From: a virus
Virus record (IMG/VR): IMGVR_UViG_3300022689_000130
Location: 62,001-126,000 of that record
Length of the DNA stretch: 64,000 nucleotides
Direction: 5' to 3' (one strand)
Below are positions 46,456 through 61,928 of the stretch, piece after piece. The position numbers were made by a program, and so were the translations under genes. How positions within the stretch are numbered: position 1 is the stretch's first letter; the number at the start of each line of letters is the position of its first letter. The notes below the pieces were generated by a model. The model searched no databases. It was not told where the DNA came from and worked only from the letters and a program-made list of their open reading frames with translations.

Positions 46456-47031
46456 GTGGATCATTTAAAAGTAAGAATTGAAGGACATGTGTGCATACGT
46501 GATTTAGATTCTGGCGAAGTCATTTTGAATCGCCGCAATGCGATCCACCGTGAAAATATGAGTTTCGCGCTCGCTAGTGCTTTGGGTGATGTTACAAATA
46601 CTCGAAATACAAAAGGTTTTATCGATAGATTGGCTTTTGGAAACGGCGGGGTAGTTGTCGATGGTAGCGGAAATATCACATACAACACTGTCAATGTAGA
46701 TAATGTAACCGACGAGTTATACAATCAGACTTATAGTAAGCAGGTAAACTTCAGCGATGTTGAAGATGCCGGCAATAATATGGGAGTGGTGCACGAAGCA
46801 GGAACCACTTTCAGTGACATCGTTGTCACATGCACATTGGACTATGGTGAGCCTGTCGGGCAAGATCCATTGGATGACACTGCCAACCAAGAGGGTGAGT
46901 TTGTGTTTGATGAGATCGGTCTAGTGTCACAACAAGGTAGATTGCTAACACATTTAATCTTTCATCCTGTGCAAAAAAGCGCAAATAGAAAGATACAAGT
47001 GGTCTACACAGTAAGATTTTTGGTAGGATAA
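46456..47031 (+). CDS. Virion structural protein (191 aa)
   Basis: Starts at GTG (46456); no in-frame ATG is available before the conserved region VRIEGHVCIRDLDSGEVI. The C-terminal part FDEIGLVSQQGRLLTHLIFH then QKSANRKIQVVYTVRFLVG is a beta-rich pattern that I recall from tail structural proteins of marine T4-like phages. No enzyme motifs. It precedes a probable fibre gene by 3 bases, so both are probably baseplate appendage parts. Confidence 0.6.
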   Translation: MDHLKVRIEGHVCIRDLDSGEVILNRRNAIHRENMSFALASALGDVTNTRNTKGFIDRLAFGNGGVVVDGSGNITYNTVNVDNVTDELYNQTYSKQVNFSDVEDAGNNMGVVHEAGTTFSDIVVTCTLDYGEPVGQDPLDDTANQEGEFVFDEIGLVSQQGRLLTHLIFHPVQKSANRKIQVVYTVRFLVG

Positions 47032-47034
47032 TAT

Positions 47035-48105
47035 ATGGCATATACAGTAGATTTTACAGACGGAACCAAAACCGCCATTTCCGTATCAAATGGTGGAGTT
47101 GAGACTTCAACTAGCCTAGGTCTTGTCGGACGAGGTTTCAATGGTTACGGTGAAACCGTAGCTGAAAACTTCCTTCATTTGCTAGAAAACTTTGCGTCAG
47201 GTTCCGCGCCAAGCAAGCCGATTGAAGGACAGCTTTGGTACGACTCAGCTAACAACTCACTCAAGTATTTTGATGATACAGTAGAGAACAGCGGCAACTG
47301 GAAGCCAGTTGCTAGCATGACTGTGCAAGGCACTGCACCAACAACCGTTGGAGAAACTGATGGTCATTTTTGGCTCGATAGCGATACTGGTCTGCTATAT
47401 CTTTATTATAACGGTAGTTGGTTGAACATTGCAGATGCTTCAAGCGACACTCGTCTTGTGGCTCGGACACGATGGGATAACCTAGGTAGCAGCCATCGCA
47501 CTTTGGAAATGCTCGTAGCAGGAGAAATTGTAAGTATTGTGAGCAGTGATGATTCTTGGCAACCAGCTGATGTCACGGTTGGCGTTAATGGTCCTGAATA
47601 TTTGGAAGATGGTTCCACACTACTTTCAACACAATATCCAACCATCGGTAAGGGTATTACAATGACAAATCAATCAAACTATTTCTTTGCTGGCACCGCT
47701 TCCCGCGCGCAATATGCTGACCTTGCAGAACGTTATCATGCTGATCAGGTATATGAAGCAGGGACAGTTGTTAAAATTGGCGGCGTGAACGAAGTTACCC
47801 AGACTGACCAAGAGTTCTGCACAGATGTCTTTGGTGTTGTATCTGCAGAGCCTGCATTTGGTATGAACGCTGCCGCCGGAACGGATGAAACCCATCCGTT
47901 TGTCGCGCTCAGCGGACGACTACCAGTGAAGGTTATAGGAAAGGTAAGTAAAGGTGATCGTCTAGTGTCAAGTAATCTGCCAGGTCATGCAATGAGTACT
48001 GGTAATACAACTGGGTTTGACTGGCAATTTGTAATTGGACGAGCACTTGAAGATAAAGATACGGATGGACCAGGAACCATTGAAGTAGTAGTAGGAACAA
48101 AGTAA
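47035..48105 (+). CDS. Tail fibre protein with peptidase G2-like C-terminus (356 aa)
   Basis: Residues about 60-130 have repeated Trp-containing strands (GQLWYDSANNSLKYFDD, DGHFWLDSDTGLLYLYYNGS) as in phage fibre heads. Residues about 230-345 (ADLAERYHADQVYEAGTVVK, FGVVSAEPAFGMNA, PFVALSGRLPVKVIGKVSKG) resemble the autoproteolytic/chaperone end domain (peptidase G2-like) that helps fibre trimerisation in other phages. Catalytic residues cannot be assigned with confidence. Adjoins the next gene without a gap. Confidence 0.65.
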   Translation: MAYTVDFTDGTKTAISVSNGGVETSTSLGLVGRGFNGYGETVAENFLHLLENFASGSAPSKPIEGQLWYDSANNSLKYFDDTVENSGNWKPVASMTVQGTAPTTVGETDGHFWLDSDTGLLYLYYNGSWLNIADASSDTRLVARTRWDNLGSSHRTLEMLVAGEIVSIVSSDDSWQPADVTVGVNGPEYLEDGSTLLSTQYPTIGKGITMTNQSNYFFAGTASRAQYADLAERYHADQVYEAGTVVKIGGVNEVTQTDQEFCTDVFGVVSAEPAFGMNAAAGTDETHPFVALSGRLPVKVIGKVSKGDRLVSSNLPGHAMSTGNTTGFDWQFVIGRALEDKDTDGPGTIEVVVGTK

Positions 48106-49353
48106 GTGAATCTAGTCCAAGGCGGTTTAATTGAAACAGCAGACTACAACGATATCGCGTTGGAGATCAATCGCCTATTCAGTGATAACACGGTTGGACT
48201 GGTGTATTCGACATCAGATCTATTGTTAAACACTACATTAGCATCGCCACTTGGTACGAATGTGCCGGTTGATCTTTCTAGTAATCCTCTTGAAACAGAT
48301 TTTTTAGTGGTAATTGTAGATACTGGCAGTGGCTTTGAAACCCTACAATCAAGCAACGGCGATTATACTATAAATTATATCGCAGATCCAGTAACTATTC
48401 AATTTCCTATCCTGTATGCAGCAGGCACGTCAATAAGAGTATATAATCGAACTGATCACCGTTATGGATGGGGACAGCAAGCAAGTGTCACACCAGTTGT
48501 AGTTGGTAATTTGGTTTATGCGGATGAGCCTGATTTGCAAGCATATATTGAAGCAAATACAAACAATTTGATCGACAAGATCAATATTGCTGAAGAACGA
48601 ATCGGAGGTCCAAGTGAGTTTAGTCGTATTTCTCCAAGCTCATTGATCCGTGCAACTGATATCACCAGTTTACGTGATGCAATTAATACCGAGATTCTTA
48701 CTCTCGATAACTATTGGAAGAACGTGATAGCAACAACAATCAATCCTGTCGAGAGTTTCACACGTGACCTCGATTGGGACAATATTTTGATTGGAGAAAT
48801 GCGTCATACATGGTCCAGTTATAACAGCATGAGATATTTCTTTAATAGTGGTGGCGAACTACGTGCCAACATTGCGCTTACAGGCGACCCAGACAATCAA
48901 GGATTTTACAACTGGAACTTAGTTGCCAATCAGATGGGCGAATTGATAGTTAATTTTGATACAACTTTTCAAAGTGGCACCGGCGGCATATCAGAGCAGA
49001 TCGGCGCATATGAGTTGACTGATACCTATCAATTACTATTCACATCAACTAGCCCATCTGCTCCTGTTGCACCCGGCGGAGAGTATGATGAATACAGCGA
49101 TTTTACCGATCTTGTAATTCGCTGGGAAGGACGAATCTTCGAAAACACACCGAGTGCAGGTGAGGTAAGTATCGATATTCGAGTTACGCTAGATGACGTA
49201 AACTTGAATACTACAACAGAAGGCACAACCACATATAACGGTGGTTACAAGATTGCTGATTCGATTACTGAAAACTCAGCTGTATTTGACATGACGTCAA
49301 ATGCACCAACCCTTAGCATATTGAATGATTTCGAAAGTGGTGATGACAGCTAA
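48106..49353 (+). CDS. Virion structural protein (415 aa)
   Basis: GTG start directly after the preceding stop. Contains DNILIGEMRHTWSSYNSMRY and FFNSGGELRANIAL, then repeated beta strands with Gly/Thr/Asn turns; no transmembrane segment or catalytic motif. The HTWSSYNSMRYFFNSGGE-like segment appears in appendage genes of related marine myophages as I recall. Last member of the late fibre run. Exact role unknown. Confidence 0.55.
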   Translation: MNLVQGGLIETADYNDIALEINRLFSDNTVGLVYSTSDLLLNTTLASPLGTNVPVDLSSNPLETDFLVVIVDTGSGFETLQSSNGDYTINYIADPVTIQFPILYAAGTSIRVYNRTDHRYGWGQQASVTPVVVGNLVYADEPDLQAYIEANTNNLIDKINIAEERIGGPSEFSRISPSSLIRATDITSLRDAINTEILTLDNYWKNVIATTINPVESFTRDLDWDNILIGEMRHTWSSYNSMRYFFNSGGELRANIALTGDPDNQGFYNWNLVANQMGELIVNFDTTFQSGTGGISEQIGAYELTDTYQLLFTSTSPSAPVAPGGEYDEYSDFTDLVIRWEGRIFENTPSAGEVSIDIRVTLDDVNLNTTTEGTTTYNGGYKIADSITENSAVFDMTSNAPTLSILNDFESGDDS

Positions 49354-49424: not shown

Positions 49425-49772
49425 ATGGACGAAAGACTTGAACGCGCGCTAGCGTTTGGAAACTATCGTATTACGATAGAAAACCGACGTAAAGCTATTG
49501 TACGCCGGTTTGAAAATATGTTGACTGTGTATCATCATAATGGCATGTTCGTTGCTAATCAAGAAACTATTGCATTTGTTGACACATTGATTAGACAAAA
49601 TCATAAAGACGCTATTTTGCTTGATAGTAAAAACAACCCTATCGAAATCGATGATCTTGTTGCGTTTCGAGATGTGCTGTTTGATGCATATTTTGCAGCC
49701 ACCAACGAATACTTGACTGAAGTCAGGAAATTGAAAAAAGCGCGCGATGTGAAAAAAGCAATGGATTGGTGA
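49425..49772 (+). CDS. Small conserved-type protein heading the accessory block (115 aa)
   Basis: MDERLERALAFGNYRITIEN, MFVANQETIAFVDTLIRQN and AYFAATNEYLTEVRKLKKAR form a helical pattern I associate with small proteins found beside fibre genes in marine T4-like phages. AAGGAGTCACT precedes the ATG. Soluble, no Cys motif, no function known. It could be a fibre chaperone or, less likely, a partner peptide for the radical-SAM enzymes downstream. Confidence 0.55.
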   Translation: MDERLERALAFGNYRITIENRRKAIVRRFENMLTVYHHNGMFVANQETIAFVDTLIRQNHKDAILLDSKNNPIEIDDLVAFRDVLFDAYFAATNEYLTEVRKLKKARDVKKAMDW

Positions 49773-49774
49773 TC

Positions 49775-50650
49775 ATGACCCGCGGTGTTGCATTCTTTGC
49801 TTACAATACAAGTCAAATAGATTACGTCAAGCTCGCCATTTTAGCGGCTAGATATTCTAAGAGACACATGCCCAGTCTTCCAACTTGCTTGATCACCGAT
49901 TCAGGATCATGGGACTGGTGTCAGCGCAGTTATAAAAAAGAAGTTGAGTTGGCATTTGATGAGATTACTCTGGCTGAGCCAGCTCAACAGAACAACAAAC
50001 GAGTGCATCATGACTCGCCCTACCATAAATTTGTTAGCGATTTCAAAAACGGAAACAAACATCGTGTATTCGAATACACCCCGTTTGATCAAACTTTATT
50101 GTTGGATATCGATTACATCATACAAAACAAGGATTTTGAATATGTGTTTGAAACCGATAATGCTGTTACATTGTTTCATAAGGCCGAATATCTTACTCGG
50201 AATTCTCCAGCACAGGCACAACGTTATTTAAACGATCAAGGTATCCCTATGCTCTGGAGCACAGTTGTCTATTTTGATCGTCGCAACCCAACAGCAAAAA
50301 TGTTTTTTGATCTCTGGGCTCACATTGGTGAAAACTACGATTTTTATAAATTTATCTACGGACTTCCTGGTAAATTATATCGCACAGATTTTTGTGTAAG
50401 TATTGCAACACACATTATGAATGGTATGGGGCCAGGAAGTGTGATTGACGAATTCCCCGGGCGCATGATTAACATGAGTCAGCATGATGATATCGTTAAA
50501 ATCAACGACGTCGACGATTGGATTTATATGGTGAACAATCGAGAAGAGCAGTGGAAAGATACACTCACCCGCATTGCGGGTGAAAACGTTCATGTCATGA
50601 ATAAGCGGTCGCTTGATCGGCATTGGGATGATTTAATGGAGAAATTATGA
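49775..50650 (+). CDS. Nucleotide-sugar transferase-like protein A (291 aa)
   Basis: GT-A-like: FFAYNTSQIDYVKLAILAAR at the start, then TPFDQTLLLDIDYIIQNK with D111-x-D113, the metal-binding DxD, and a LWSTVVYFDRRNPTAKMF strand. Fits GT8-like glycosyltransferases that move a sugar from a nucleotide donor. The start is the ATG at 49775, 2 bases after the previous stop; an upstream TTG is in frame but has no better site. Substrate and acceptor unknown. The next gene is a related but degenerate copy. Confidence 0.6.
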   Translation: MTRGVAFFAYNTSQIDYVKLAILAARYSKRHMPSLPTCLITDSGSWDWCQRSYKKEVELAFDEITLAEPAQQNNKRVHHDSPYHKFVSDFKNGNKHRVFEYTPFDQTLLLDIDYIIQNKDFEYVFETDNAVTLFHKAEYLTRNSPAQAQRYLNDQGIPMLWSTVVYFDRRNPTAKMFFDLWAHIGENYDFYKFIYGLPGKLYRTDFCVSIATHIMNGMGPGSVIDEFPGRMINMSQHDDIVKINDVDDWIYMVNNREEQWKDTLTRIAGENVHVMNKRSLDRHWDDLMEKL

Positions 50651-51507
50651 CGCAAGGGTATGTTTTTTTCGGAGTCGACGATGATGGTAGCACACAAAAT
50701 CTAGACTGTGCCCATGCGTTGAATTCTACTCTCAAGCTGGCTGATCCAGATCGAAAAACATGTGTAATCATCAATGCATTTGATCAAATGCCTGAACATA
50801 TTGAAGATGATTTTGACTATATAGCTGAGCTGCCATTTGGCCGCAATGCAAGCGATTCTACTGACCCAATGGTTGACTTTTGGCAAATGATCCATTGTAC
50901 ACCGTTCGATGAAAGTATGTTTCTTAATACTTTCAGCCTGGCTATAAACAATATGAACAGTCTATGGGAGGTAGCCAGCCAGAGAGAAATGACATTTGCG
51001 AAAGCAAGAGATTTCCGTGGAGAATGCACTATCGACGTTAGACGTATTTCATCTCTCGAGGCGGTAAATATCAAACCATTTGATACAGACTGTATCTACG
51101 TTCCCAAGACAGAACGCACATATGAATTTTTCAAGATGGCGGATCCAGTTTTGAAGGGCTGGAGAGATGTTTATCGTGAAGTGCTGACCGAAACTAGACC
51201 AGCTAACTTCGTCCACTCAGTGATGTCTAATATTACTATGCATTTACTCGGTGAGCAACCTAATCTTAGTGATACCTTTGACTATCAAGACATCAGCCTC
51301 GATTTTCTATATGATTCTGAGAATGACGAAAATCCAGACTGGCTAGACACACTTAATGTATGGCTGACAGATGACCTGCGTCTGAAAATTAATAATTACA
51401 ATCAGAATGGATTGGTTGTTTACCGAGACAGAAAATTTCTAACAGATTCAATGAAAACAAAAATTAATGAGCATTATAAAAAGAGCAAGATCAAAATCAA
51501 AGCCTAA
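50647..51507 (+). CDS. Degenerate GT-A-like protein B, paralogue of the preceding gene (286 aa)
   Basis: GYVFFGVDDDGSTQNLDCAH at the start and CTPFDESMFLNTFSLAI in the place of the neighbour's TPFDQTLLLDIDYI: same context, but the DxD is replaced by N94/F96. Overall size similar. Suggests a non-catalytic partner, perhaps an allosteric or binding subunit. It overlaps the preceding stop by 4 bases (ATGA). Weak overall similarity, so shared descent is inferred from the motif context and adjacency. Confidence 0.5.
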   Translation: MTQGYVFFGVDDDGSTQNLDCAHALNSTLKLADPDRKTCVIINAFDQMPEHIEDDFDYIAELPFGRNASDSTDPMVDFWQMIHCTPFDESMFLNTFSLAINNMNSLWEVASQREMTFAKARDFRGECTIDVRRISSLEAVNIKPFDTDCIYVPKTERTYEFFKMADPVLKGWRDVYREVLTETRPANFVHSVMSNITMHLLGEQPNLSDTFDYQDISLDFLYDSENDENPDWLDTLNVWLTDDLRLKINNYNQNGLVVYRDRKFLTDSMKTKINEHYKKSKIKIKA

Positions 51508-52429
51508 GTTCTACGTCTATTTTAACGACTGGACTGGTGAAATTATTTCTGTTGGGCGCAGCAAAAGAAACAGCCCGGCAACTTGTATTGTCACTGATGA
51601 TGCTATTGCCGAACAAATCGTCGATGGTGATGCCAACGTAAGTGACTACCTTGTGAGCTCTGATCGTAATCGTAATGAGCGCATTGTAGCTAAAAGCGAT
51701 GTGTTGCAGCTACGCAAGCAAGAAGACAGTTTGTTCTTACTTCCTGAAGGTCGTATAAAAGACTGGGAGATCCGTGCTCGGCTATTTCGCCATAATATGA
51801 TGTTTGTTGTAGAAACCAACAGGAAGATGTTGAGTAGGTTAATTGGACACAATAGGCGTCAAGAAATTCATCTAGAAAAATCAGCAACATTTGATTTCTA
51901 TATCATACGCCGAGATCATCCAGATTATTTAATCAAAACGGTGAGCATCGATGCTGAAACACTTGTTAATCAGCCACGTGTAGCTGTTGATGTGCAAGAT
52001 ATCGTTAAATATGTGACATTAGATCAAATTAGTGTTATGACACGTCGATATTTTGAAAAATACTATTTTGATTCGCTATACGATCGCTATGTTGATCCCG
52101 ACAATGTCAAACATAGTCCCCAATTTCTTAAATGGCAGTGGGCTGATCAGTGGCCAGAATATCATCTCGAAGCTGTTCAACATGGTAATTTAGTCACCTT
52201 TACCAGCGCAGTAAGTGCTGAACAGTTGACAGACATAGGGTTTACAAAACGCTACAAGTCATTTTATGTGGTCGGAGAAACACCAGACCAATTAATAGGA
52301 AAATTTATGCTAGATGTCGAACGTCTGCGAACAGGACAACCACAGAAGTTCAAAGTAGACTTCAATATAATGCATGTGAATATAATGTTTGGCGGTAGCC
52401 AAATCAAATTGAATAAGAGAGCAGTATAA
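51467..52429 (+). CDS. Unknown accessory protein (320 aa)
   Basis: Starts 41 bases inside the end of the preceding gene, so it is probably coupled; no later start is plausible before the conserved-looking KFYVYFNDWTGEIISVGRSK. Soluble, mixed alpha/beta, contains ESTD-poor but basic stretches and no Cys cluster. I do not recognise it. It lies between GT-like proteins and ends with TAATG into the next GT gene, so it is probably part of the same pathway. It could be a scaffold or a virion protein. Confidence 0.5.
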   Translation: MSIIKRARSKSKPKFYVYFNDWTGEIISVGRSKRNSPATCIVTDDAIAEQIVDGDANVSDYLVSSDRNRNERIVAKSDVLQLRKQEDSLFLLPEGRIKDWEIRARLFRHNMMFVVETNRKMLSRLIGHNRRQEIHLEKSATFDFYIIRRDHPDYLIKTVSIDAETLVNQPRVAVDVQDIVKYVTLDQISVMTRRYFEKYYFDSLYDRYVDPDNVKHSPQFLKWQWADQWPEYHLEAVQHGNLVTFTSAVSAEQLTDIGFTKRYKSFYVVGETPDQLIGKFMLDVERLRTGQPQKFKVDFNIMHVNIMFGGSQIKLNKRAV

Positions 52430-53418
52430 TGACTATCACACCAATCAATGATTTTGATATTGTTTTTATCAGTTATGATGAACCTAATGCTGACGAGCAC
52501 TGGTATGACCTACAAGAAAAATGTCCATGGGCAACGCGCAGCCATGGTGTGCATGGTAGTGACGCGGCACACAAAGCCGCCGCCAAATTATGTGAAACCG
52601 AGCGCATTATCACTGTAGATGCAGACAACATTGTCGACCCAGAATTCTTTAATTTGGAGTTAGACTTAGATAAAATCGGACGTAATGATGTTATTAGCTG
52701 GGCTGCAAAGAACGAGATCAACGGACTGGTATACGGCAACGGCGGTATCAAGTGTTGGCCAAGGCATGTGATTGAAAACATGCGCACACACGAAGCAGCG
52801 CCAGCCAACGACAAACGTGCGCAGGTTGACTTCTGTTGGAACATCAACTATGTGCAAATGAACAACGTCTATAGCCACGTCTACAACAATGGATCACCAT
52901 TACAAGCTTGGCGCGCTGGCTTCCGTGAAGGCGTTAAGATGACTCTTGAAGGCGGTGATACAGTAGAGCGCAGTCGTGTCAAGAAAGTTCACCGCAAGAA
53001 CTATCAGCGTTTGTTGGTTTGGCAAACTGTTGGTGCAGACGCAACTAACGGTTTGTGGGCTATATACGGTGCTCGCCTTGGCTGTGTGATGGCAAATTTG
53101 CGGCGCGACGAGTGGGATTGGCGCAATGTGCGTGACTTTGAATGGCTCAACGCATTTTGGCAAGATAACATTCAGCCAGAGTTTGTCACTGACTCAGGCG
53201 AACATATATGTGAACGAACAGGCTACGCTTGGAATCGAGGGCGGTTGCTCGAAGTAATCGGTAGTTTAGGTGAAGAACTTCGCAGAGAATTGGATTTAGA
53301 GATTGCAGAAATGCCAGCTCAAACGAGTCGGTTTTTTAAAGAGGTTTACGTTAACCCGGCCCGTGTCCATCCAATGGCTCGCGAAGAGATCGTGATAAAC
53401 GAAATTGAAAATGCATGA
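52429..53418 (+). CDS. Glycosyltransferase, GT-A fold (329 aa)
   Basis: FDIVFISYDEPNADEHWYDL at the N-terminus, GVHGSDAAHKAAAKLCETER, then IITVDADNIVDP with D64-A-D66, the DxD of GT-A enzymes that coordinates the nucleotide-sugar metal. The C-terminal half (FCWNINYVQMNNVYSHVYNN, RLLVWQTVGADATNG) is long and Trp-rich and may bind the acceptor. Family resembles phage and viral glycosyltransferases. The start forms TAATG with the preceding stop. Substrate cannot be assigned. Confidence 0.7.
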   Translation: MTITPINDFDIVFISYDEPNADEHWYDLQEKCPWATRSHGVHGSDAAHKAAAKLCETERIITVDADNIVDPEFFNLELDLDKIGRNDVISWAAKNEINGLVYGNGGIKCWPRHVIENMRTHEAAPANDKRAQVDFCWNINYVQMNNVYSHVYNNGSPLQAWRAGFREGVKMTLEGGDTVERSRVKKVHRKNYQRLLVWQTVGADATNGLWAIYGARLGCVMANLRRDEWDWRNVRDFEWLNAFWQDNIQPEFVTDSGEHICERTGYAWNRGRLLEVIGSLGEELRRELDLEIAEMPAQTSRFFKEVYVNPARVHPMAREEIVINEIENA

Positions 53419-53448: not shown

Positions 53449-55017
53449 ATGTCAGCAAAACTAGATGACAAAGATTGGCTAAAAGAGCCAAGCGGTTTTA
53501 TCGCAAACAACGAACACAATATCCAGAACATGAAAGAGCTACTAGATAAAACTGGATGTGGCATGTGTTTGGCAAAGTTTCGTCAGGTAACACTGCACCT
53601 GGGAACTGGCATGACACATAGTTGTCACCATCCAACACCACACAAGATCGATCCAAAGGAAGTGCAGAAGAATCCTAACTTGCTCTTCAACACACCTCGC
53701 CTCAAAGAGGCTCGCAGACAGATGCTCAACAACGAGCGTCCAGACGAATGCGACTATTGCTGGCGCATTGAAGACGACGGTAACACAAGCGACCGCGCCT
53801 TCAAAAGCTTGGAGCACTGGGCTCTACCAGACCACGACGAGATCACCGCGCTGGACGGCAGTGAAGACATCTTCCCCAGCTACCTTGAGGTCAGCTTTTC
53901 AAACGTATGTAACATGAAGTGTACATATTGTGGCCCAGAGTTTTCAAGCAAATGGGTAGAAGAACTCAAGCAGTATGGCCCGCTTGAGGTGATGTCTGAC
54001 ACACCACACAAGCAATGGATCCAGGGTTATCAGGACTTGGATACATTAAACTACAAGCACAGAGAGTTCAATCCCTACATTGATGCGTTCTGGAAGTGGT
54101 TCCCCCGTGCCCTGCCCCACCTCAAGCACTATCGGATTACAGGCGGTGAACCGCTCATGAGCAAGGAAACGTTCAAGAGCATGGACTGGTTGATTGAAAA
54201 TCCCAACGAAGATCTAGAGTTCAGCATCAACTCCAACTTTAGTGTGCCTGACAAGCTATGGGATCAGTTCATCGAACGCCTTGAAGTGTTACGCTTTGAC
54301 CGTGTCAAAAAAGTTACTATCTACACTAGCATTGAGGGCTGGGGCAAACGCGCGGAGTACGCCCGCACAGGACTGGATTTTGAACTGCTTCGTAAGCGTT
54401 ACGAGCAGATCCTTGCAATGGGCAATGTGCGGTGTGTAATCATGGCCGCTTACAACATCTTCTCAATCACTAGTATGAAGGATATGCTCGAATGGGTGTA
54501 TGAGATGAAGACCAAATACAATCCCAACAACTCAAGTGTTCACCTGGAAGAGAACACAGGATTTGAATTGGTGACAGGCAGCTATGGCGCCCGCCGTGAT
54601 GCTAACCCTGAGCATCACGTTACAGCAGGCATTGACATTCCTTATTTGCGTAGTCCAGAACATCTGGACGCACAGTATTGTGACGCCGACATGGTTGAGC
54701 GTTATATGATACCTACAATGGACTTTATGGCCAGCCATGCAGCCAGCAGCGTGTGGGGAGACCACCAAGGCTTTGAAAACTACGAGATTGAAAAGCTCAA
54801 GCGTATCATTGTCCACCGTATGTATTTCAATCGCAAGACACGAGACGACCAGGACAGCAGACATGATATCATGAAAAACCGTGCCAAGTTTTACGACTTT
54901 GTAAATAGCATGGATAAACGACGAGGCACAAACTTCCTTGAGACTTTCCCTGAAATGACAGACTTTTACGAGCTATGCTGTGAGAGCAAACAAGCCTTGG
55001 TCAAAATCAACAGCTAA
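53449..55017 (+). CDS. Radical SAM enzyme 1, N-terminal Cys-His cluster (522 aa)
   Basis: CxxxCxxC of the radical-SAM core at C154, C158, C161 (NVCNMKCTYCGPEFSSKW) and a GGE-type motif RITGGEPLM, with later SINSNFSVP and IYTSIEG strands. Before the core (residues about 35-115) lies a Cys-His block: GMCLAKFRQVTLHLGTG, then SCHHPTPHKIDPKEVQ and DECDYCWRIED, probably holding an auxiliary cluster. The same block recurs in the gene at 56143. GAGG precedes the ATG. Radical SAM enzymes use an Fe4S4 cluster and S-adenosylmethionine to make a 5'-deoxyadenosyl radical. Substrate unknown. Confidence 0.85.
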   Translation: MSAKLDDKDWLKEPSGFIANNEHNIQNMKELLDKTGCGMCLAKFRQVTLHLGTGMTHSCHHPTPHKIDPKEVQKNPNLLFNTPRLKEARRQMLNNERPDECDYCWRIEDDGNTSDRAFKSLEHWALPDHDEITALDGSEDIFPSYLEVSFSNVCNMKCTYCGPEFSSKWVEELKQYGPLEVMSDTPHKQWIQGYQDLDTLNYKHREFNPYIDAFWKWFPRALPHLKHYRITGGEPLMSKETFKSMDWLIENPNEDLEFSINSNFSVPDKLWDQFIERLEVLRFDRVKKVTIYTSIEGWGKRAEYARTGLDFELLRKRYEQILAMGNVRCVIMAAYNIFSITSMKDMLEWVYEMKTKYNPNNSSVHLEENTGFELVTGSYGARRDANPEHHVTAGIDIPYLRSPEHLDAQYCDADMVERYMIPTMDFMASHAASSVWGDHQGFENYEIEKLKRIIVHRMYFNRKTRDDQDSRHDIMKNRAKFYDFVNSMDKRRGTNFLETFPEMTDFYELCCESKQALVKINS

Positions 55018-56150
55018 TGCTACCATATGAACACATAAGACGCTTACACATTGAGGTAAGCAGCATTTGCAATGCCGCTTGCCCTAACTGTCCACGAAAT
55101 GTCCATGGCGGATATGTCCTGCCTGATCTCATAGAGCGGTCAGTGACGTTTGATGAGTTTAAACAGATGTTTGCTGTTGATACAATTGTTCAACTTGAGC
55201 AGATTCGTTTTTGTGGCAACTATGGTGATCCGGTAAGTGCAAGAGACCTTCCACAAATTATAGAGTGGATTTACAGCTATAATCCAGACATACATATTGA
55301 GATTAACACAAATGGCGGTGCCCGTAGCACTTCATGGTGGGAAAGATTAGGTCGCCTCATGAAGGGTCACACTGGATTTGTTGTGTTCAGTGTTGACGGT
55401 TTAGAAGATACCAATCACATCTATCGTCGTGGTGTTGTGTGGAAGAAGCTCTATGCGAACATGGAAGCTTATGTGAAGGGTGGCGGTCGAGCAGTGTGGG
55501 AGTTTTTGGTGTTCCAGCACAATGAGCACCAAATTAATGAGGCACGAGAACTGAGTCGCCAGTTAGACTTTGACAAATTTCGCGTCAAGAAGCCTTTTGG
55601 TTTTAACGATAGCTATAAGAGCACACCATACATGCTGGTTTTGGATCGTGAAGGCAATTTTGAGAGAACATTGTGGCCGCGTGGTGTTGAGCCTGTTGAA
55701 TTAGAATCACGTGACATGGACTTAGAGGCGTATCTCCGCGATCTCGCACTCGCACACAAGGCAGCATTTGAAGACCCTGAAGAACGTGAGATGTATTTTG
55801 AATACATGGACACTGCCCGCCCAACTGGAATTGACTGCATGAGTATCAGGGACAAAGAGATTTATGTAGACAGTCAGGGTTACATGTATCCGTGTTGTTT
55901 CTTAGGTCACGGCGGTCAAATGCAGCGCGGCCGGGAAACATTATTTTTCCGCCGCTGGGTAACAAAGAATGTGGGATGGGATAACATCAGCCTGTTCAAA
56001 CGCAGCGTGAAAGAAATTGCTGAAAGCGAATACTTTAGCTTGATTGAGCAAACGTGGGACAAGACCCATCGCGAAGGCAAGATGGCAATGTGTTCGCTCA
56101 TGTGCTCAAGCGACTGCGCCCGTAACACCATGAGGAATCTATATGACTAA
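55017..56150 (+). CDS. Radical SAM enzyme 2, conventional SPASM order (377 aa)
   Basis: Core cysteines C18, C22, C25 (SICNAACPNCPRNVHGG) at the N-terminus; the GGE position reads RFCGNYGDPVSA. The C-terminus has IYVDSQGYMYPCCFLGHGG and a last Cys pair in MAMCSLMCSSDC, i.e. a SPASM-type auxiliary-cluster domain placed after the core, as in peptide- and sugar-modifying enzymes. ATG overlaps the previous stop (TAATG). Only one of the six with this order. Could act on a peptide, a sugar or a nucleotide sugar. Confidence 0.8.
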   Translation: MLPYEHIRRLHIEVSSICNAACPNCPRNVHGGYVLPDLIERSVTFDEFKQMFAVDTIVQLEQIRFCGNYGDPVSARDLPQIIEWIYSYNPDIHIEINTNGGARSTSWWERLGRLMKGHTGFVVFSVDGLEDTNHIYRRGVVWKKLYANMEAYVKGGGRAVWEFLVFQHNEHQINEARELSRQLDFDKFRVKKPFGFNDSYKSTPYMLVLDREGNFERTLWPRGVEPVELESRDMDLEAYLRDLALAHKAAFEDPEEREMYFEYMDTARPTGIDCMSIRDKEIYVDSQGYMYPCCFLGHGGQMQRGRETLFFRRWVTKNVGWDNISLFKRSVKEIAESEYFSLIEQTWDKTHREGKMAMCSLMCSSDCARNTMRNLYD

Positions 56151-57624
56151 ACGTAGTGCAACTATAAATTGGATGGATACAGTTGTTAACAGTAAAAGTC
56201 GCACTTTCTGCGGCGCCAAGTGGTATAATGCAACTATCTGGCTAGGGAATGGTGCAACTGCTAGCTGTCACCATCCTCCACCTCACCAAATTGACGCAGA
56301 AGAAGTTCAGCGTAACCCTCGTGCACTGCACAACACTGAATACAAGAAGCTAGTGCGCAAACACATGCAAGAAGGGGTGCAAACTAAAGAATGTGACTAT
56401 TGCTGGCGCATCGAGAACATGGACAGCAATGTGGTAAGTGATCGTTATTACAAGAGCAGCATCTATTCTGAGGAAGAGCTGCAAGAGGCGTTTGACACGC
56501 CTTGGGATGCAGATATCAGCCTCAAACAGCTAGAAATTGCATTTGATAACAATTGTAACTTCGCTTGTTCTTATTGCAACGCAGGGTTCAGCACAACCTG
56601 GGCACATGATATCAACAAGAATGGTGCGTATCAGGACCTCACCAGCGATGGATGGGGTGCCTATGCACACAATGGCAATTGGGCCCATCCATATGGAGTG
56701 ACCAACAAGGACAACCCATATGTAGAGGCGTTTTGGAAGTGGTGGGAAAGCGAACTACAGCACACATTGCGTGAGTTGCGTGTTACAGGTGGCGAAGCAA
56801 CTGTAAGTCCGGACTTCTGGAAACTAGTTGCATGGTATGAGGCCAATCCTCAATGCCAGGTTGAGCTCAGTGTTAACACCAACCTGGGTATCAAGAAGAG
56901 ACCTCTTGACAGGCTATGCAGACTTAGCCAAGAGATACCTACGTTTAACTTGTTTACAAGCAACGAGAGCATGGGCAGCAATGCTGAATACATTCGTGAC
57001 GGACTTGAGTGGGTAGCATGGCAAGAAAACCTGCGCTATGCAATGACACATGGACGCTTCCGCTACATTCATGTCATGATGACAATCAACGCACTCTGCT
57101 TGGCTAGCTTTACTGACTTTCATGACTTCTTGCTAGACTTGCGTGAAGGTTCAGATACACGAATTGAGTTCAGTCACAATATTCTTCGCTTTCCTAGCTT
57201 CCAAAGCATTACAACACTGCCCAGGCATCTAAGAGAGCAGCAGACAGAGGCGATCACAGCTTGGCTAGCGGATAACGAGCATCGTATGCAGCCACATGAG
57301 ATCGATAGCTTCCACCGCACCATACGCTATGTGCAGGAGATTGATGAAGGACACAACATTGGCAACTTGCACAGCAATTTAGAGAAGCGTCAACGAGACT
57401 TCCGTAACTTTTACGCACAGTATGACCGCCGTCGTGAAAAGAGCTTTGCACAAAGCTTTGCTAACTGGCCCGAATTGGTTGAATGGTATGAAGGTGTAGA
57501 CGGCCGCGCCAACGTAAATAAGATTGACGAACTGATTGTGGGTGATGCAACTGAATGGGGCCGCCCAATATTCGACGAAGTGCTCGCTGAAGCCCGAGAC
57601 AAGAAAATAATTGATGATGAGTAA
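56143..57624 (+). CDS. Radical SAM enzyme 3, paralogue of enzyme 1 (493 aa)
   Basis: Core C138, C142, C145 (DNNCNFACSYCNAGFSTTW), GGE motif RVTGGEATVS, and the N-terminal block with TFCGAKWYNATIWLGNG, SCHHPPPHQIDAEEVQ and ECDYCWRIENM, so similar to the 53449 gene that both clearly descend from one ancestor. The C-terminal 150 residues differ. It starts 8 bases inside the previous gene. Two divergent copies in one operon suggest two related substrates or successive steps. Confidence 0.85.
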   Translation: MTKRSATINWMDTVVNSKSRTFCGAKWYNATIWLGNGATASCHHPPPHQIDAEEVQRNPRALHNTEYKKLVRKHMQEGVQTKECDYCWRIENMDSNVVSDRYYKSSIYSEEELQEAFDTPWDADISLKQLEIAFDNNCNFACSYCNAGFSTTWAHDINKNGAYQDLTSDGWGAYAHNGNWAHPYGVTNKDNPYVEAFWKWWESELQHTLRELRVTGGEATVSPDFWKLVAWYEANPQCQVELSVNTNLGIKKRPLDRLCRLSQEIPTFNLFTSNESMGSNAEYIRDGLEWVAWQENLRYAMTHGRFRYIHVMMTINALCLASFTDFHDFLLDLREGSDTRIEFSHNILRFPSFQSITTLPRHLREQQTEAITAWLADNEHRMQPHEIDSFHRTIRYVQEIDEGHNIGNLHSNLEKRQRDFRNFYAQYDRRREKSFAQSFANWPELVEWYEGVDGRANVNKIDELIVGDATEWGRPIFDEVLAEARDKKIIDDE

Positions 57625-58768
57625 GACTAGATGCCCAATGCCGTTTGCAGGTTTTGATATTGAAACAAACGGCACAGTGAAGCCGTGCTGCATTTATGAA
57701 GGCAGTATTGGCAACGTCAATGACGAGAACATTGACGATATTTGGCATGGCGATAGGCTCAAAAAGATACGCGAGGATTTAGAAGCAGGACATCGCATCC
57801 CTGGATGCCGTCAGTGCTGGGTAGAAGAAGAAAGCACCGGGTATAGCAAACGCATACGCGAGCAAGACTGGTTCCCTGACACAGTATACGATAACCCGCA
57901 AGTCAAACGATTGGATATTAAACTGGGCAATACCTGCAACCTCAAATGTCGCATATGCAACTATGAGAGTAGCAGCATCTTCAACAGTGAGAACAGACAG
58001 ATTGCCAGCCGCTTTCCAGATGCAAAAATCAACTTCATTGCAAATGACCGTGTGGACCGTTACAAGTGGTATCGTGATGAAGATTTTTGGCACGTTATTC
58101 TCAAGTATGGTCCTGAGATCGAACAGATTGATTTCATGGGTGGCGAGCCATTGTTGGATCGCACACACAAGCGCATCTTAGAGAAACTTGTTGAACAAGG
58201 ACTGGCGCCAAACATCATCATCAACTATACCACAAACGGAACCATTGTTCCTGACTTTGAACTGCTACGCAACTTCAACAAGGTGCTGTTTACTGTGAGT
58301 GGCGACGCGATCGAGCGCCGCTTTGAATATAATCGCTATCCAGTGCGTTGGGCAGACTTCAAGAACAACATATTTGACATACGTGCAAGTGCAGACAGCT
58401 TTCTTATCAGCTACAGCGTCAGCAGCTATAGTCTATTTGGAATTCCTGATGCACTTGACTATTACATGGAGAACGGATATATAGTATGGTTCAACTATGT
58501 GCATTTGACTGAAGCCAGCAATGCACGTAACTTGCCGCCCGAGCTTAAGCAACAGTTTAGAGAATTGGTCGCTGATCGCCACCGCGATGAGTGGCTATGG
58601 ACACGAGCAAACATACAAGAGGTCTTGGACTTTATCGACGTTGATGACAACCCCAAACACTTCCAAGACTTTATTTACGATTGCAAATTGAGGGATCAAT
58701 TCCGCTATCAAGATTTTAGAGATTACCTGCCAGAATATGCCCCCTACGCCGATCTTGCACAAGTGTAA
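57614..58768 (+). CDS. Radical SAM enzyme 4, permuted SPASM-like N-terminus (384 aa)
   Basis: Before the core lies a SPASM-like region (residues about 6-75): CPMPFAGFDIETNGTVKPCC, then GCRQCWVEEE. The core C108, C112, C115 (NTCNLKCRICNYESSSIF) follows, with FMGGEPLLDR. This N-terminal auxiliary-cluster placement defines a group of phage and bacterial enzymes called twitch-domain radical SAM proteins. The TTG at 57611 and ATGs at 57614 and 57617 are all possible starts. It overlaps the previous gene by 11 bases. Substrate unknown. Confidence 0.85.
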   Translation: MMSKTRCPMPFAGFDIETNGTVKPCCIYEGSIGNVNDENIDDIWHGDRLKKIREDLEAGHRIPGCRQCWVEEESTGYSKRIREQDWFPDTVYDNPQVKRLDIKLGNTCNLKCRICNYESSSIFNSENRQIASRFPDAKINFIANDRVDRYKWYRDEDFWHVILKYGPEIEQIDFMGGEPLLDRTHKRILEKLVEQGLAPNIIINYTTNGTIVPDFELLRNFNKVLFTVSGDAIERRFEYNRYPVRWADFKNNIFDIRASADSFLISYSVSSYSLFGIPDALDYYMENGYIVWFNYVHLTEASNARNLPPELKQQFRELVADRHRDEWLWTRANIQEVLDFIDVDDNPKHFQDFIYDCKLRDQFRYQDFRDYLPEYAPYADLAQV

Positions 58769-58787
58769 CAACCAGAGCCGCACATTG

Positions 58788-59588
58788 ATGATGACGTGTC
58801 TTTACAAAGGACACCTCTATGATCTCTATCGCGAATACAGTGCTGACATTGTGCGTAGCCATGAGGAATTTGCACAATTCAACAACTGGGACTATTTTGT
58901 TATGGGCGACGAGATCAACAACATTTACAGGCTTGAGTCCTGGCGTGATACAAACATTGATGCACGTTGTGATTGCTTGGGAATGAACAAGTGGTATGCG
59001 ATGAACTGGGTATTTGAGAATACTGACTATGATGAAATTCTGCTTATAGACTTTGACAGCAAGTTTATTTACAACACTGCATTAGACTTGGGAGACTGCG
59101 ACATAAAAGCCACATATCTTACACTCAGCCCATACTATGATACTGTATGGTTCCTCTACTATTGCATGTATCGTGGTGTTACATTTGAGCAACTTAATCA
59201 GGCAGTGCCAAACAAGTTCAATACAGGGTTTATCAAGGTTCGTCGTGGATTTTTCACACAAGAAGACTTGGATAACTTTGTGGACTTTGCCTGCCAGACA
59301 TTGAGTGATGTTAAATATAGCGAACGCAAAAGCTGGATACACATGAGCAACGCTGACATGGGACGTATCCACGAAATACACAACACAACACTCACGCCAT
59401 TTGATGAAGTGTTTCTAGTTTACCAGATTATGAAGCAACATCCTGTAATAGAACCATTTGACAAGAGATTTAATGTCAACAGAACTGAGCTTGTGGAGAG
59501 CAATACAGCGCATGTGCACTTCTGCGTGAACAAAGAGCGTGACATTCAAACCCTATGCGAGCCTGGCGTTGCGAAGTTTCTAAAATGA
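58788..59588 (+). CDS. Glycosyltransferase-like protein with DxD (266 aa)
   Basis: CLYKGHLYDLYREYSADIVR then a GT-A-like YDEILLIDFDSKFIYN with D88 and D90 as the metal-binding pair, and FNTGFIKVRRGFFTQEDLDN, a typical acceptor-side strand. Start is the ATG at 58788; a longer frame upstream overlaps the intergenic stretch. It lies between two radical-SAM genes and overlaps the next by 4 bases. Donor and acceptor unknown; a nucleotide-sugar-binding role without transfer is possible. Confidence 0.6.
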   Translation: MMTCLYKGHLYDLYREYSADIVRSHEEFAQFNNWDYFVMGDEINNIYRLESWRDTNIDARCDCLGMNKWYAMNWVFENTDYDEILLIDFDSKFIYNTALDLGDCDIKATYLTLSPYYDTVWFLYYCMYRGVTFEQLNQAVPNKFNTGFIKVRRGFFTQEDLDNFVDFACQTLSDVKYSERKSWIHMSNADMGRIHEIHNTTLTPFDEVFLVYQIMKQHPVIEPFDKRFNVNRTELVESNTAHVHFCVNKERDIQTLCEPGVAKFLK

Positions 59589-60610
59589 GTGCCCCACAAA
59601 ATCTCGAACAGTATCTTAAGGATCACATCTGTTTCAAGCCTTGGGATAGTATAAGTATTGAGCCTAATGGTGATGTAATCAATTGTTGTATGCCTTGGCT
59701 ACCTAAACCCATTGGTAACTTGTTTGAGAACACTATGGACGAAATCCTCAGCAGCGAGGCAAGCCAAGAAGTTCAAGCTAGTATCCTGGATGGAAGTTAT
59801 CGTTACTGCAACAAGGACATGTGCAGTGAGATTTATGGTGGTCGTTTGCCTAAACGACCACAAGAGATGAAACTACCGCAACGGCCCTACAAGATTCGAT
59901 TTAACAACGATAGAAGTTGCAATCTATGGTGCCCTAGCTGTCGCTTGCGACGTGTGCAGCACAACGAGGGTCCGGCATATGAGAAGGCTAAGTGGCTAAA
60001 CGACAGAATTTATGAATTCATGTTGGAACAAGCCTCCCGTGGCCCAGTTGAGATTTGGGTAACAGGAAGCGGCGACGCAATTGGCAGCCGCATCTACCGT
60101 GACATGCTCAAACGCATTGACGGTTCGGAGTTTCCAGACCTTAAAATCAATCTCATGACCAATGGCGTATTGTTTACTCCCAAGACTTGGGAAAGCCTGC
60201 ATCGTATCTGGAACAATATCACACTGGTTGATATCAGTGTGGACGCAGGCACAAAAAGCGTCTACCAAAAGATGCGACCACCTGGCAAGTGGGATCAACT
60301 ACTCAGCAACGTCAAATATTTAGGTGAGTGTGCGCAAGAATATGACAACATCAATATCAACTACGGCTTTGTGGTGCAACATGGAAACTATACAGATATG
60401 GTCAACTTTGTGCATACGTTTAGCCAATTTGAGCGTTACCACTTGCTCAACTTCACGTTAGTTAACGACTGGAATACATGGGAAGATTTCGGAAGCCATG
60501 CAGTATGGAAGCGCAGCCATCCAGAACATGAAGCGTTCTTAGAAATGGTTCGCCGTCCAGAATTAGTTGATGAACGAGTGTTTATGGGCTCGCTTAAACG
60601 TTTTCTCTAA
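59585..60610 (+). CDS. Radical SAM enzyme 5, permuted N-terminus (341 aa)
   Basis: N-terminal block CFKPWDSISIEPNGDVINCC and YCNKDMCSEIYGGR before the core C112, C116, C119 (RSCNLWCPSCRLRRVQ). The usual GGE is replaced by VTGSGDAIGS, the same style of change as in enzyme 2. Start overlaps the previous stop by 4 bases (ATGA). Last plus-strand radical-SAM gene, ending 49 bases before the stop of a convergent sixth enzyme. Confidence 0.8.
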   Translation: MSAPQNLEQYLKDHICFKPWDSISIEPNGDVINCCMPWLPKPIGNLFENTMDEILSSEASQEVQASILDGSYRYCNKDMCSEIYGGRLPKRPQEMKLPQRPYKIRFNNDRSCNLWCPSCRLRRVQHNEGPAYEKAKWLNDRIYEFMLEQASRGPVEIWVTGSGDAIGSRIYRDMLKRIDGSEFPDLKINLMTNGVLFTPKTWESLHRIWNNITLVDISVDAGTKSVYQKMRPPGKWDQLLSNVKYLGECAQEYDNININYGFVVQHGNYTDMVNFVHTFSQFERYHLLNFTLVNDWNTWEDFGSHAVWKRSHPEHEAFLEMVRRPELVDERVFMGSLKRFL

Positions 60611-60628
60611 TCACTTGTAAATGAACGC

Positions 60629-60657
60629 AACCTTTTTGACGAATCGTCAAAAAGGTT
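60629..60657. repeat. 13-bp palindrome between convergent radical-SAM genes
   Basis: Arms 60629-60641 and 60645-60657 are perfectly complementary with a 3-base loop (AAT). It lies exactly between two convergent stops and may reduce read-through, but no T-run follows outside the stem on either strand, so it is not a standard intrinsic terminator. Confidence 0.6.
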
Positions 60658-60659
60658 GA

Positions 60660-61928
60660 TCACTCCACGTCTCCAAAATCTATGTTGCATAGCAAATCAG
60701 CAAGTTCAGGCAAACTACGTTTCCAGTCAAGGTCGGCAGTTTCGTCAAACATATCTAGTCGTATCTTAGCGTGTTTCATTTCATGTAGCCAGTTTTTATT
60801 GTTGCCGTCGCTTTCATACATGAAGTTAATGCAGTTCTGCATTGCATCAGCAGCACTCTTCACGTCAGCTTTGAGGAAACCATCGCGACGTTCTGTCAAC
60901 ATTTCCTTGAGTGTGTCTTTGTAATCAGGCGGAAGATGCTTAAGGCTGAACAGTGTGGGGTAGGTAACAAAGTTGGTATAGAGGGTGTAGCAATCTTCAA
61001 TCCAACGATTATCAACGCACCACTGCACAAAGTCTGGAAACTGGTGGATATTGAGAATGCTCACCGTAACACTGGGATAAATGAACAGGTTGAGGTCTGG
61101 ACATTCGAACTTGAGGAAGTTGAAGTTGTCGCGTGTCTTATCCCACTTGGCGCCAGTGCGGATATACTCAAATACATCATCCATGCCGTCAATGCTAGCC
61201 GCAACAGTGATATGGTGGAAGTGCTTCCACCACTCCACGATGTTCTTTCGCTTGTAAGTGATTGAGCTCATGTTGGTGTTATAGCTGAGGTGAACCTCTG
61301 GTGCATTGCCAATCTCAATGAGGTGCTCGAGTGTGTAATAATGTTGCTTTTCCATTAAGGGTTCGCCACCAGCCCAATACATGCGGTCTACAGTGCTGAG
61401 AAATGGCTTAATTTTGTCAAATTCGTCAGCACGTATGAATTTTTGAATGTTGCTTGTATCAGTGCCAGGGCTCTGACGCTTGATAATTTCCTTCTGCTCA
61501 TCATACCAAGTGCTACTGAGTTCATGTCCACAAGTTCGGCACTTGAGATTGCAGTGGTTGCTGAAGCGCAGATCTACATAGCTGAGGCGTATATTGTCAA
61601 TGCTACCGTCCTTATTTGTATCTGAGATTTCCTTTTCGTAACGATGCAAGTAAGCTTTGTTCATTTGCGATCGCATACTGTCCAAACCAGCACGTTCTCT
61701 GTCAAAGCAGATGCGGCAAGCATCATGTTCACCATCAGCAAGCATTGTCCGGCGCATTTCTTTCATGCCCTCGCTGTTCATGGCATCAAGAAGATTGACG
61801 CCATCACGCTTGAGATTGCTAAACTTTTTACGGTCAAGGCGATACATGTCTGTCATACAGCATGGCAAGACTTGGCCTGTTGGATACAAGTGTAAATGCA
61901 TCCATGGATAAACACATAATTTGCTCAT
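60660..61928 (-). CDS. Radical SAM enzyme 6, permuted N-terminus (422 aa)
   Basis: N-terminal auxiliary block CVYPWMHLHLYPTGQVLPCC (C5, C23, C24) and ACRICFDRERAG (C71, C74) precede the core C126, C130, C133 (NHCNLKCRTCGHELSSTW) and MYWAGGEPLME. Resembles enzyme 4 in layout. It is the only member on the minus strand and has its own late-type promoter. In related phage and bacterial genomes such twitch-type proteins occur singly near surface-polysaccharide genes as I recall, but no substrate is known to me. Confidence 0.85.
   Translation of the reverse strand: MSKLCVYPWMHLHLYPTGQVLPCCMTDMYRLDRKKFSNLKRDGVNLLDAMNSEGMKEMRRTMLADGEHDACRICFDRERAGLDSMRSQMNKAYLHRYEKEISDTNKDGSIDNIRLSYVDLRFSNHCNLKCRTCGHELSSTWYDEQKEIIKRQSPGTDTSNIQKFIRADEFDKIKPFLSTVDRMYWAGGEPLMEKQHYYTLEHLIEIGNAPEVHLSYNTNMSSITYKRKNIVEWWKHFHHITVAASIDGMDDVFEYIRTGAKWDKTRDNFNFLKFECPDLNLFIYPSVTVSILNIHQFPDFVQWCVDNRWIEDCYTLYTNFVTYPTLFSLKHLPPDYKDTLKEMLTERRDGFLKADVKSAADAMQNCINFMYESDGNNKNWLHEMKHAKIRLDMFDETADLDWKRSLPELADLLCNIDFGDVE

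What the first reader, a model, noticed from the sequence alone, without database searches (positions are those of the whole stretch)
53449..61928. Six radical-SAM enzymes in 8.5 kb of a T4-like phage
CxxxCxxC cores are plain at C154/158/161, C18/22/25, C138/142/145, C108/112/115, C112/116/119 and C126/130/133 of six genes. Five on the plus strand are translationally coupled or nearly so, with one glycosyltransferase-like gene among them. One phage having several different radical-SAM proteins with auxiliary-cluster domains implies a multi-step chemical pathway rather than a single modification. I know of single such proteins in marine phages, not a cluster of this size. Most likely it builds or alters a sugar or a peptide on the virion or host surface.
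Basis: partly seen in the sequence, partly recalled or inferred. Interest (0 to 1): 0.85.

Follow-up and report, generated by a model that had tools for sequence, protein, structure and literature searches.

The report
Phage radical-SAM and glycosyltransferase island
A large marine T4-like phage carries at least 14 different radical-SAM enzymes (six of them in the flagged stretch) in one island that starts beside its tail-fibre and sugar-transfer genes; the same kind of island is conserved in dozens of related viruses and parts of it sit in surface-polysaccharide gene clusters of predatory bacteria, so it probably builds unusual sugars for a virus or cell surface.

Summary
The six radical-SAM genes are real, with intact CxxxCxxC cores at the stated residues. 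They are under half of the cluster: the 144.7 kb record holds 14, and its end cuts the 14th. All 14 are old paralogues (36% identity at most). In families with enough relatives, core and auxiliary-cluster cysteines are invariant.

The island is conserved. In 47 of 47 testable viral relatives of the glycosyltransferase gene at 52429 (gtB), a GT8-like gene and tail gene u5 lie upstream; in 32 of 40 a radical-SAM gene follows within six genes. In 14 of 14 long records that carry both gtB and r14, gtB precedes r14 on the same strand by 14.5-47 kb; those records hold 10-23 radical-SAM genes each. Three enzymes (r7, r10, r14) form a linked triad in Bdellovibrionota genomes, often beside CapD, DegT, dTDP-sugar and GT2 genes.

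Best explanation: a glycan-building or decorating pathway, most likely for tail fibres, otherwise for the host envelope. No substrate or chemistry is shown. A T4-like virus with 12 radical-SAM genes was reported in 2017 (PMC5332604), so the bare phenomenon is not new; the conserved island and its bacterial counterpart were not found in the papers searched.

The parts
46456..47031 (+). u3, virion/tail-type protein at the start of the conserved block
   Evidence: phrog_11259 E 3e-63 (unknown function); position conserved upstream of u4 in many relatives
47035..48105 (+). u4, tail-fibre-like protein
   Evidence: phrog_6427 E 8e-20, phrog_14394 virion structural E 2e-10, phrog_19602 tail fibre E 1e-6; upstream of gtB in 32 of 47 relatives
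48106..49353 (+). u5, fibre-region protein of unknown fold
   Evidence: no family match; upstream of gtB in 47 of 47 dereplicated viral relatives
49425..49772 (+). u6, conserved 115-aa protein between the fibre genes and the GTs (chaperone or accessory protein?)
   Evidence: alignment over its whole length; upstream of gtB in 46 of 47
49766..50650 (+). gtA, GT8/glycogenin-like glycosyltransferase
   Evidence: conserved TPxDxTLLLDxD; weak profile match to glycogenin-1, E 0.022; upstream of gtB in 47 of 47
50647..51507 (+). u7, paralogue of gtA; this copy reads NTF where the family consensus has DxD
   Evidence: profile-profile E 3.8e-31 with gtA; family consensus
51467..52429 (+). u8, unknown protein of the conserved block
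   Evidence: upstream of gtB in 40 of 47
52429..53418 (+). gtB, GT-A-fold glycosyltransferase (SYDEP and DxD motifs)
   Evidence: 31-sequence alignment, invariant D64 and D66; AlphaFold2 pLDDT 89.5; nearly all leading PDB matches are GT-A glycosyltransferases (RmlT, WrtF, TarP, TarS, SunS), though TM only about 0.3
53449..55017 (+). r1, N-terminal-twitch radical-SAM protein
   Evidence: NF033640 323 bits; C40, C59, C101, C104 and C154/158/161 invariant in 60 of 60 relatives; AlphaFold2 pLDDT 91.1, radical-SAM folds on top in PDB
55017..56150 (+). r2, radical SAM with C-terminal SPASM-like domain
   Evidence: PF04055 E 1e-7, SPASM 21.1 bits just under cut-off 21.5; core Cys 21/21, C293/C294/C359/C363 17/17
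56143..57624 (+). r3, N-terminal-twitch radical-SAM protein
   Evidence: NF033640 288 bits; core and auxiliary Cys 32/32
57611..58768 (+). r4, N-terminal-twitch radical-SAM protein (ATG start at 57614)
   Evidence: NF033640 293 bits; core and auxiliary Cys 13/13
58737..59588 (+). gtC, GT-A-like protein (DFDSKF) of near relatives only
   Evidence: no family match; found in 2 near relatives at 81 and 66%; GT assignment is inference from the motif
59555..60610 (+). r5, radical SAM with N-terminal SPASM/twitch-like domain (start probably 59585)
   Evidence: PF04055 E 4e-8, SPASM E 2e-10; NF033640 57 bits, below cut-off 170
60660..61928 (-). r6, N-terminal-twitch radical-SAM protein on the minus strand
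   Evidence: NF033640 358 bits; core Cys 60/60; minus strand also in L095 and L102
61980..62747 (+). SGNH-hydrolase-like protein (GDSFTYG), possible O-acyl enzyme
   Evidence: motif only; no significant family match; conserved next to r6 in L095 and L102
62744..63262 (+). u9, unknown
   Evidence: conserved in L095 and L102
63259..63993 (+). sulfotransferase-like protein
   Evidence: PF13469 E 0.0045, below cut-off; the island continues to record position 144664 (r7-r14, gtD, carbamoyltransferase, PP-loop enzyme)

Best explanation
The genes are part of a 35-37 kb phage island (window 46456 to the end of the record) that makes or decorates a glycan. GT-A transferases (gtA, gtB, gtD, gtC) move sugars; the radical-SAM enzymes carry out C-H chemistry on nucleotide sugars or on the growing glycan (dehydrogenation, epimerisation, deoxygenation or carbon-carbon bond formation, as BtrN, NeoN, AprD4 or DesII do elsewhere); carbamoyl-, methyl- and sulfo-transfer and PP-loop amidation decorate it. 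The likeliest destination is the tail-fibre or adhesin proteins encoded at the head of the island; the next likeliest is the host envelope. Shown: the genes, intact catalytic sites, conserved order with tail fibres and GTs, and shared modules with bacterial polysaccharide loci. Inferred: that the substrate is a sugar, the individual reactions, and the destination.
For: 14 radical-SAM genes in one record, all with an intact core, core and auxiliary cysteines invariant within families while other cysteines vary. Tail gene u5 and gtA precede gtB in 47/47 and u6 in 46/47 dereplicated viral relatives; a radical-SAM gene follows within six genes in 32/40 and is the next gene in 23/40; baseline around the capsid gene 1 of 80 loci. 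gtB precedes r14 on the same strand in 14/14 long records that carry both, with 10-23 radical-SAM genes each. gtB model has GT-A transferases on top in PDB; gtA resembles glycogenin; gtB~gtD and gtA~u7 are paralogues. Carbamoyltransferase, methyltransferase and QueC-like PP-loop genes in the island. Bdellovibrionota: r7+r10 beside r14 in 6/6 untruncated neighbourhoods found from r14 alone, near CapD-type, Bac_transf, epimerase, dTDP-sugar isomerase, DegT and GT2 genes.
Against: No enzyme has a close solved relative: r1 matches only the radical-SAM core (E 1.3e-3 at best, TM 0.25-0.3), and the single best hit is a peptide maturase, SkfB; the r10 profile also finds SkfB. GT assignments rest on fold and motif, not on Pfam matches, and the fold matches have low TM. 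Two of the six bacterial loci have no polysaccharide gene in the stretch examined. Tail-fibre adjacency could reflect a recombination hot spot. All viral scans were ranked by similarity to this phage.
Confidence: 0.5

Rival explanations
1. The island remodels the host envelope during infection (O-chain or capsule change), to exclude competing phages, rather than the virion.
For: Phage GTs in pelagimyophage host-recognition clusters were read this way (PMC7029224); the bacterial triad lies in surface-polysaccharide loci; the Vibrio phage K566 radical-SAM group lies some 5 kb from a gene annotated PagP, lipid A acylation.
Against: Strict linkage to tail-fibre genes (47/47) is better explained by a virion target; no flippase, polymerase or ligase gene was recognised in the island.
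Confidence: 0.25
2. The radical-SAM enzymes modify peptides: RiPP-like changes (epimerisation, crosslinks) on tail-fibre proteins or on a small conserved peptide, with the GTs as a separate or coupled step.
For: SPASM/twitch radical-SAM enzymes are mostly peptide maturases; best fold and profile hit is SkfB; a conserved 74-aa protein lies beside r7 in many phages.
Against: No PqqD/RRE match in the record (detached RREs can be missed by this model); almost no room for precursor genes in the 53-62 kb stretch; the 74-aa protein is conserved along its whole length, unlike a leader/core peptide, and was not seen beside the bacterial triad.
Confidence: 0.13
3. No single pathway: a hypervariable host-interaction region that collects unrelated radical-SAM genes with separate roles.
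For: Content varies greatly between viruses (10-23 genes, different sets); orientation is not uniform (r6).
Against: Fixed start (u3-u6-gtA-u7-gtB) and end (r14), conserved r1-r3 pair, and a triad shared with bacterial genomes.
Confidence: 0.08
4. DNA, tRNA or small-molecule modification (7-deazaguanine or cofactor type), as radical-SAM genes in phages are often annotated (QueE, ahbD).
For: A QueC-like PP-loop gene in the island; weak profile matches to QueE and MoaA models.
Against: No QueD/PTPS family in the record; none of the six reaches a QueE, AhbD or MoaA cut-off; the bacterial neighbourhoods are polysaccharide loci.
Confidence: 0.04

Closest known systems
T4-like environmental virus TARA_ERS488813_N000010 (Nishimura et al. 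2017, PMC5332604)
   Same: T4-like marine virus (183 kb) with 12 radical-SAM genes, read there as Fe-S metabolism genes.
   Different: Not described in the passage read (section 14) as an island with tail fibres and GTs; that genome has an Fe-S A-type carrier gene, whereas this record (a fragment) has no Fe-S_biosyn match. Kinship to the present phage could not be tested.
Pelagimyophage host-recognition cluster with radical-SAM cassettes and GT8 genes (PMC7029224)
   Same: Radical-SAM and GT genes downstream of tail-fibre genes in a variable region.
   Different: Only 'some gene cassettes' noted; no conserved order, count or bacterial counterpart described.
NCBIfam NF033640, twitch domain-containing radical SAM protein
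   Same: r1, r3, r4 and r6 pass the curated cut-off.
   Different: r2 and r5 do not; the family has no assigned reaction, so membership gives no function.
Bdellovibrionota r7-r10-r14 modules (for example L187, L195, L290-L296)
   Same: Orthologues of r10 (60-61%), r14 (59-64%) and r7 (43-49%), with gtD, gtB or d1 homologues nearby.
   Different: Cellular genomes, no tail-fibre genes; lacks r1 and r3 in most; function uncharacterised.
Sugar-acting radical-SAM enzymes BtrN, NeoN, AprD4, DesII, BlsE
   Same: Radical-SAM fold; BlsE, DesII and AprD4 appear among the fold matches of r1.
   Different: No close sequence or fold relationship; the resemblance in chemistry is inference.

Membership tests
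Radical SAM superfamily (PF04055) | CX3CX2C motif | tested here: met
   All 14 proteins of the record; invariant within families
Radical SAM superfamily (PF04055) | Profile match and GGE-type SAM motif | tested here: met
   All six match PF04055, r1 and r3 below the cut-off; GGE in r1, r3, r4, r6; variant GNYGDP in r2 and GSGDA in r5
NF033640 N-terminal-twitch radical SAM | Score at or above 170 bits | tested here: met
   r1 323, r3 288, r4 293, r6 358 bits
NF033640 N-terminal-twitch radical SAM | Same for r2 and r5 | tested here: not met
   40 and 57 bits; not filed as members
SPASM domain (PF13186) | Cut-off 21.5 bits and ligand cysteines | tested here: met
   r4 48, r5 41, r6 34 bits (N-terminal); r2 21.1 bits, just under, with conserved C-terminal Cys
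Glycosyltransferase GT-A fold (GT2/GT8-like) | GT-A fold and DxD in gtB | tested here: met
   Leading PDB matches are GT-A transferases, E 6e-4 to 5e-3, prob mostly above 0.9 but TM about 0.3; D64 and D66 invariant
Glycosyltransferase GT-A fold (GT2/GT8-like) | Membership of a curated Pfam GT family | tested here: not met
   No Pfam match at E 0.1 for gtA, u7, gtB, gtC; glycogenin similarity of gtA only E 0.022
Glycosyltransferase GT-A fold (GT2/GT8-like) | Transfers a sugar | not testable with these tools
   Needs biochemistry
RiPP maturation cluster | Leader-binding RRE/PqqD domain | tested here: inconclusive
   No PF05402 match in the record, but this model misses many RREs and the record is a fragment
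RiPP maturation cluster | Precursor peptide gene with conserved leader and variable core | tested here: inconclusive
   Genes overlap or nearly touch in the flagged stretch; one conserved 74-aa ORF elsewhere in the island, conserved along its whole length
7-deazaguanine (queuosine-type) pathway | QueD/PTPS enzyme with QueE and QueC | tested here: not met
   No PF01242 in the record; no QueE cut-off reached; one QueC-like protein only

The most novel reading that the evidence does not exclude
A whole lineage of marine T4-like phages carries a virus-borne radical glycan assembly line, with 10 to more than 20 different radical-SAM enzymes, that makes sugars unknown from any virus and places them on its own tail fibres, and that shares a three-enzyme core with predatory bacteria.
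Probability: 0.3. Interest if true: 0.88.

Novelty: new variant of a known kind. Interest (0 to 1): 0.7.

Why it matters
If true, these phages devote up to a quarter of a typical T4-size genome to radical chemistry near their adhesion genes. That would be a new route to diversify virion or host surfaces, a large unexplored set of radical-SAM reactions in an abundant group of marine viruses, and a pathway shared between phages and predatory bacteria. It also bears on surveys that file such genes as auxiliary metabolism (Fe-S, ahbD): in a Baltic Sea survey the ahbD call was left uncertain by its own authors (PMC9301287).

Tried and rejected
Close DNA relatives among 50,697 phage records: none. 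Protein relatives of r1, r6 and gtB there: only distant hits, chiefly Vibrio phages for r1 and r6, none for gtB. Recent tandem duplication of one gene: rejected, maximum pairwise identity 36%. Queuosine-type DNA modification: no QueD. Phage-borne Fe-S carrier: none found. PDB by sequence for gtD and d1: nothing informative. A tree of the twitch families: r1, r3, r5 and r13 are clean clades, but my best-hit bins for r4, r6, r9 and r10 are not, so those labels are family-level only; the strict r10 and r14 sets were treed apart. The search for small regulatory or RNA features was not made.
Full report
1. Observation. Each has one CxxxCxxC at the stated residues; two numbers depend on the start codon chosen. 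PF04055 matches all six and NF033640, the curated twitch radical-SAM family, matches r1, r3, r4 and r6 far above its cut-off. This is not a chance motif.

2. The cluster is larger than the window shows. The window is bases 62001-126000 of a 144,664-base linear IMG/VR record; the record has 14 radical-SAM genes, eight of them at 132.8-144.5 kb, and the last is cut by the end. I call them r1-r14. Among them lie a GT-like gene (gtD), a carbamoyltransferase, a methyltransferase, a QueC-like PP-loop protein, and sulfotransferase-, SGNH- and SDR-like proteins (the last three by motif or weak match).

3. They are old and functional-looking. The best pair, r9/r10, is 36% identical; most are below 30% or align only in part. 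In families with enough relatives the three core cysteines and four or five auxiliary cysteines are invariant (r1 60/60, r3 32/32, r6 59-60/60, r9 35/35), while other cysteines come and go. Most have N-terminal twitch-type cysteines; r2 and r7 have a C-terminal SPASM-like set; r8, r12 and r14 have the core first.

4. Conservation as a unit. A scan with r1 gave 80 viral loci at 81-33% identity, many with the order u3-u4-u5-u6-gtA-u7-u8-gtB-r1-r3. To test the link from another side I scanned with a gtB profile. In 57 dereplicated loci, of those with enough sequence, u5 and gtA were upstream in 47/47, u6 in 46/47, and a radical-SAM gene lay within six genes downstream in 32/40 (next gene in 23/40; gtD in 12/40). 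Around the capsid gene of 80 relatives only one locus had any radical-SAM gene. A third scan with r14 gave 62 dereplicated loci with a median of seven radical-SAM genes per locus (about 20.8 kb when complete); in the maps printed, r14 usually ends the array. Reading the positions together, gtB precedes r14 on the same strand in 14 of 14 long records that carry both, by 14.5-47 kb. Those records carry 10-23 radical-SAM genes each. Caveat: every scan keeps the 80 best relatives of this phage's proteins, and the records are fragments.

5. A bacterial counterpart. A gtB profile search of bacterial genomes gave phage-like contigs in MAGs, a lone gtB in Rhodobacteraceae, and Bdellovibrionota contigs with gtB, gtD, d1, r7, r10 and r14 homologues. 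r14 and r10 are 59-64% identical between this phage and the Bdellovibrionota. Searching 144 Bdellovibrionota genomes with r14 alone found nine; in all six untruncated neighbourhoods examined, r7 and r10 lie near r14, usually with gtD or d1. Neighbours include CapD/WbpM-type, bacterial sugar transferase, epimerase, dTDP-sugar isomerase, DegT aminotransferase and GT2 genes. In trees, viral r14 nests among the bacterial ones, while viral and bacterial r10 are separate (0.94 support for the bacterial clade): an old exchange, with bacteria-to-virus the likelier direction for r14.

6. Structures. gtB is predicted well (pLDDT 89.5), and nearly all of its leading PDB matches are GT-A glycosyltransferases, with low TM. 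r1 is predicted well (pLDDT 91.1); its best matches are radical-SAM enzymes of different chemistry (SkfB, viperin, BlsE, QueE, NifB, DesII, AprD4, EpeE), none close. Structure therefore supports enzyme class and does not decide the reaction.

7. Mechanism. The best-supported reading is a glycan pathway: transferases, decorations and polysaccharide-locus relatives all point to sugar. The strict link to tail-fibre genes points to the virion, but a shared hot spot would look the same. Steps shown: gene content, intact sites, linkage, bacterial counterpart. Steps inferred: substrate, reactions, destination. Peptide modification remains open, because SPASM/twitch enzymes are mostly peptide maturases and SkfB is the top hit.

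8. Known and new. Nishimura et al. 2017 (PMC5332604) reported a T4-like marine virus with 12 radical-SAM genes; the 2020 pelagimyophage study (PMC7029224) noted radical-SAM cassettes in the host-recognition cluster. Nine literature searches in an open-access library found no description of the conserved tail-fibre/GT/radical-SAM island or of the bacterial triad; subscription journals and preprints were not searched.

Noticed in passing
L009 about 5066-5292 (record about 131.1 kb): A 74-aa protein (LRELQ..SARAL...ATNN....FNKQAHH.SQNWY..VI.WY), not in the ORF list at the lengths used, is conserved between d1 and r7 in many phages; unknown role, possibly an accessory subunit or peptide substrate.
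   Followed up: partly
window 50647-51507: u7 is a paralogue of gtA whose copy in this phage lacks the DxD that the family consensus keeps, so it may be an inactive partner.
   Followed up: partly
L297 (Vibrio phage K566) 10711-28078: A small cultured-phage analogue: three annotated radical-SAM genes close together and a fourth 13 kb on, some 5 kb from a gene annotated as lipid A acyltransferase PagP. A possible laboratory handle.
   Followed up: partly
L185, L186, L188, L189, L191: Rhodobacteraceae genomes (Tateyamaria, Ruegeria, Cribrihabitans) carry a lone gtB homologue at about 40% identity with no radical-SAM gene of this set nearby.
   Followed up: no
L176, L177, L201, L178, L179, L180: Contigs in bacterial MAGs (Gammaproteobacteria MED685, Neomarinimicrobiota RS350, Rickettsiales MED657) carry this phage tail-fibre/GT/radical-SAM block and are probably phage contigs binned with the host or by mistake.
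   Followed up: no
G198 (L336), 179,647 bases: 23 radical-SAM matches in one incomplete virus record, the highest count seen.
   Followed up: no
window 33628-44376: A 3582-aa virion protein (phrog_10938) lies upstream of the fibre genes; a candidate target for any virion modification.
   Followed up: no
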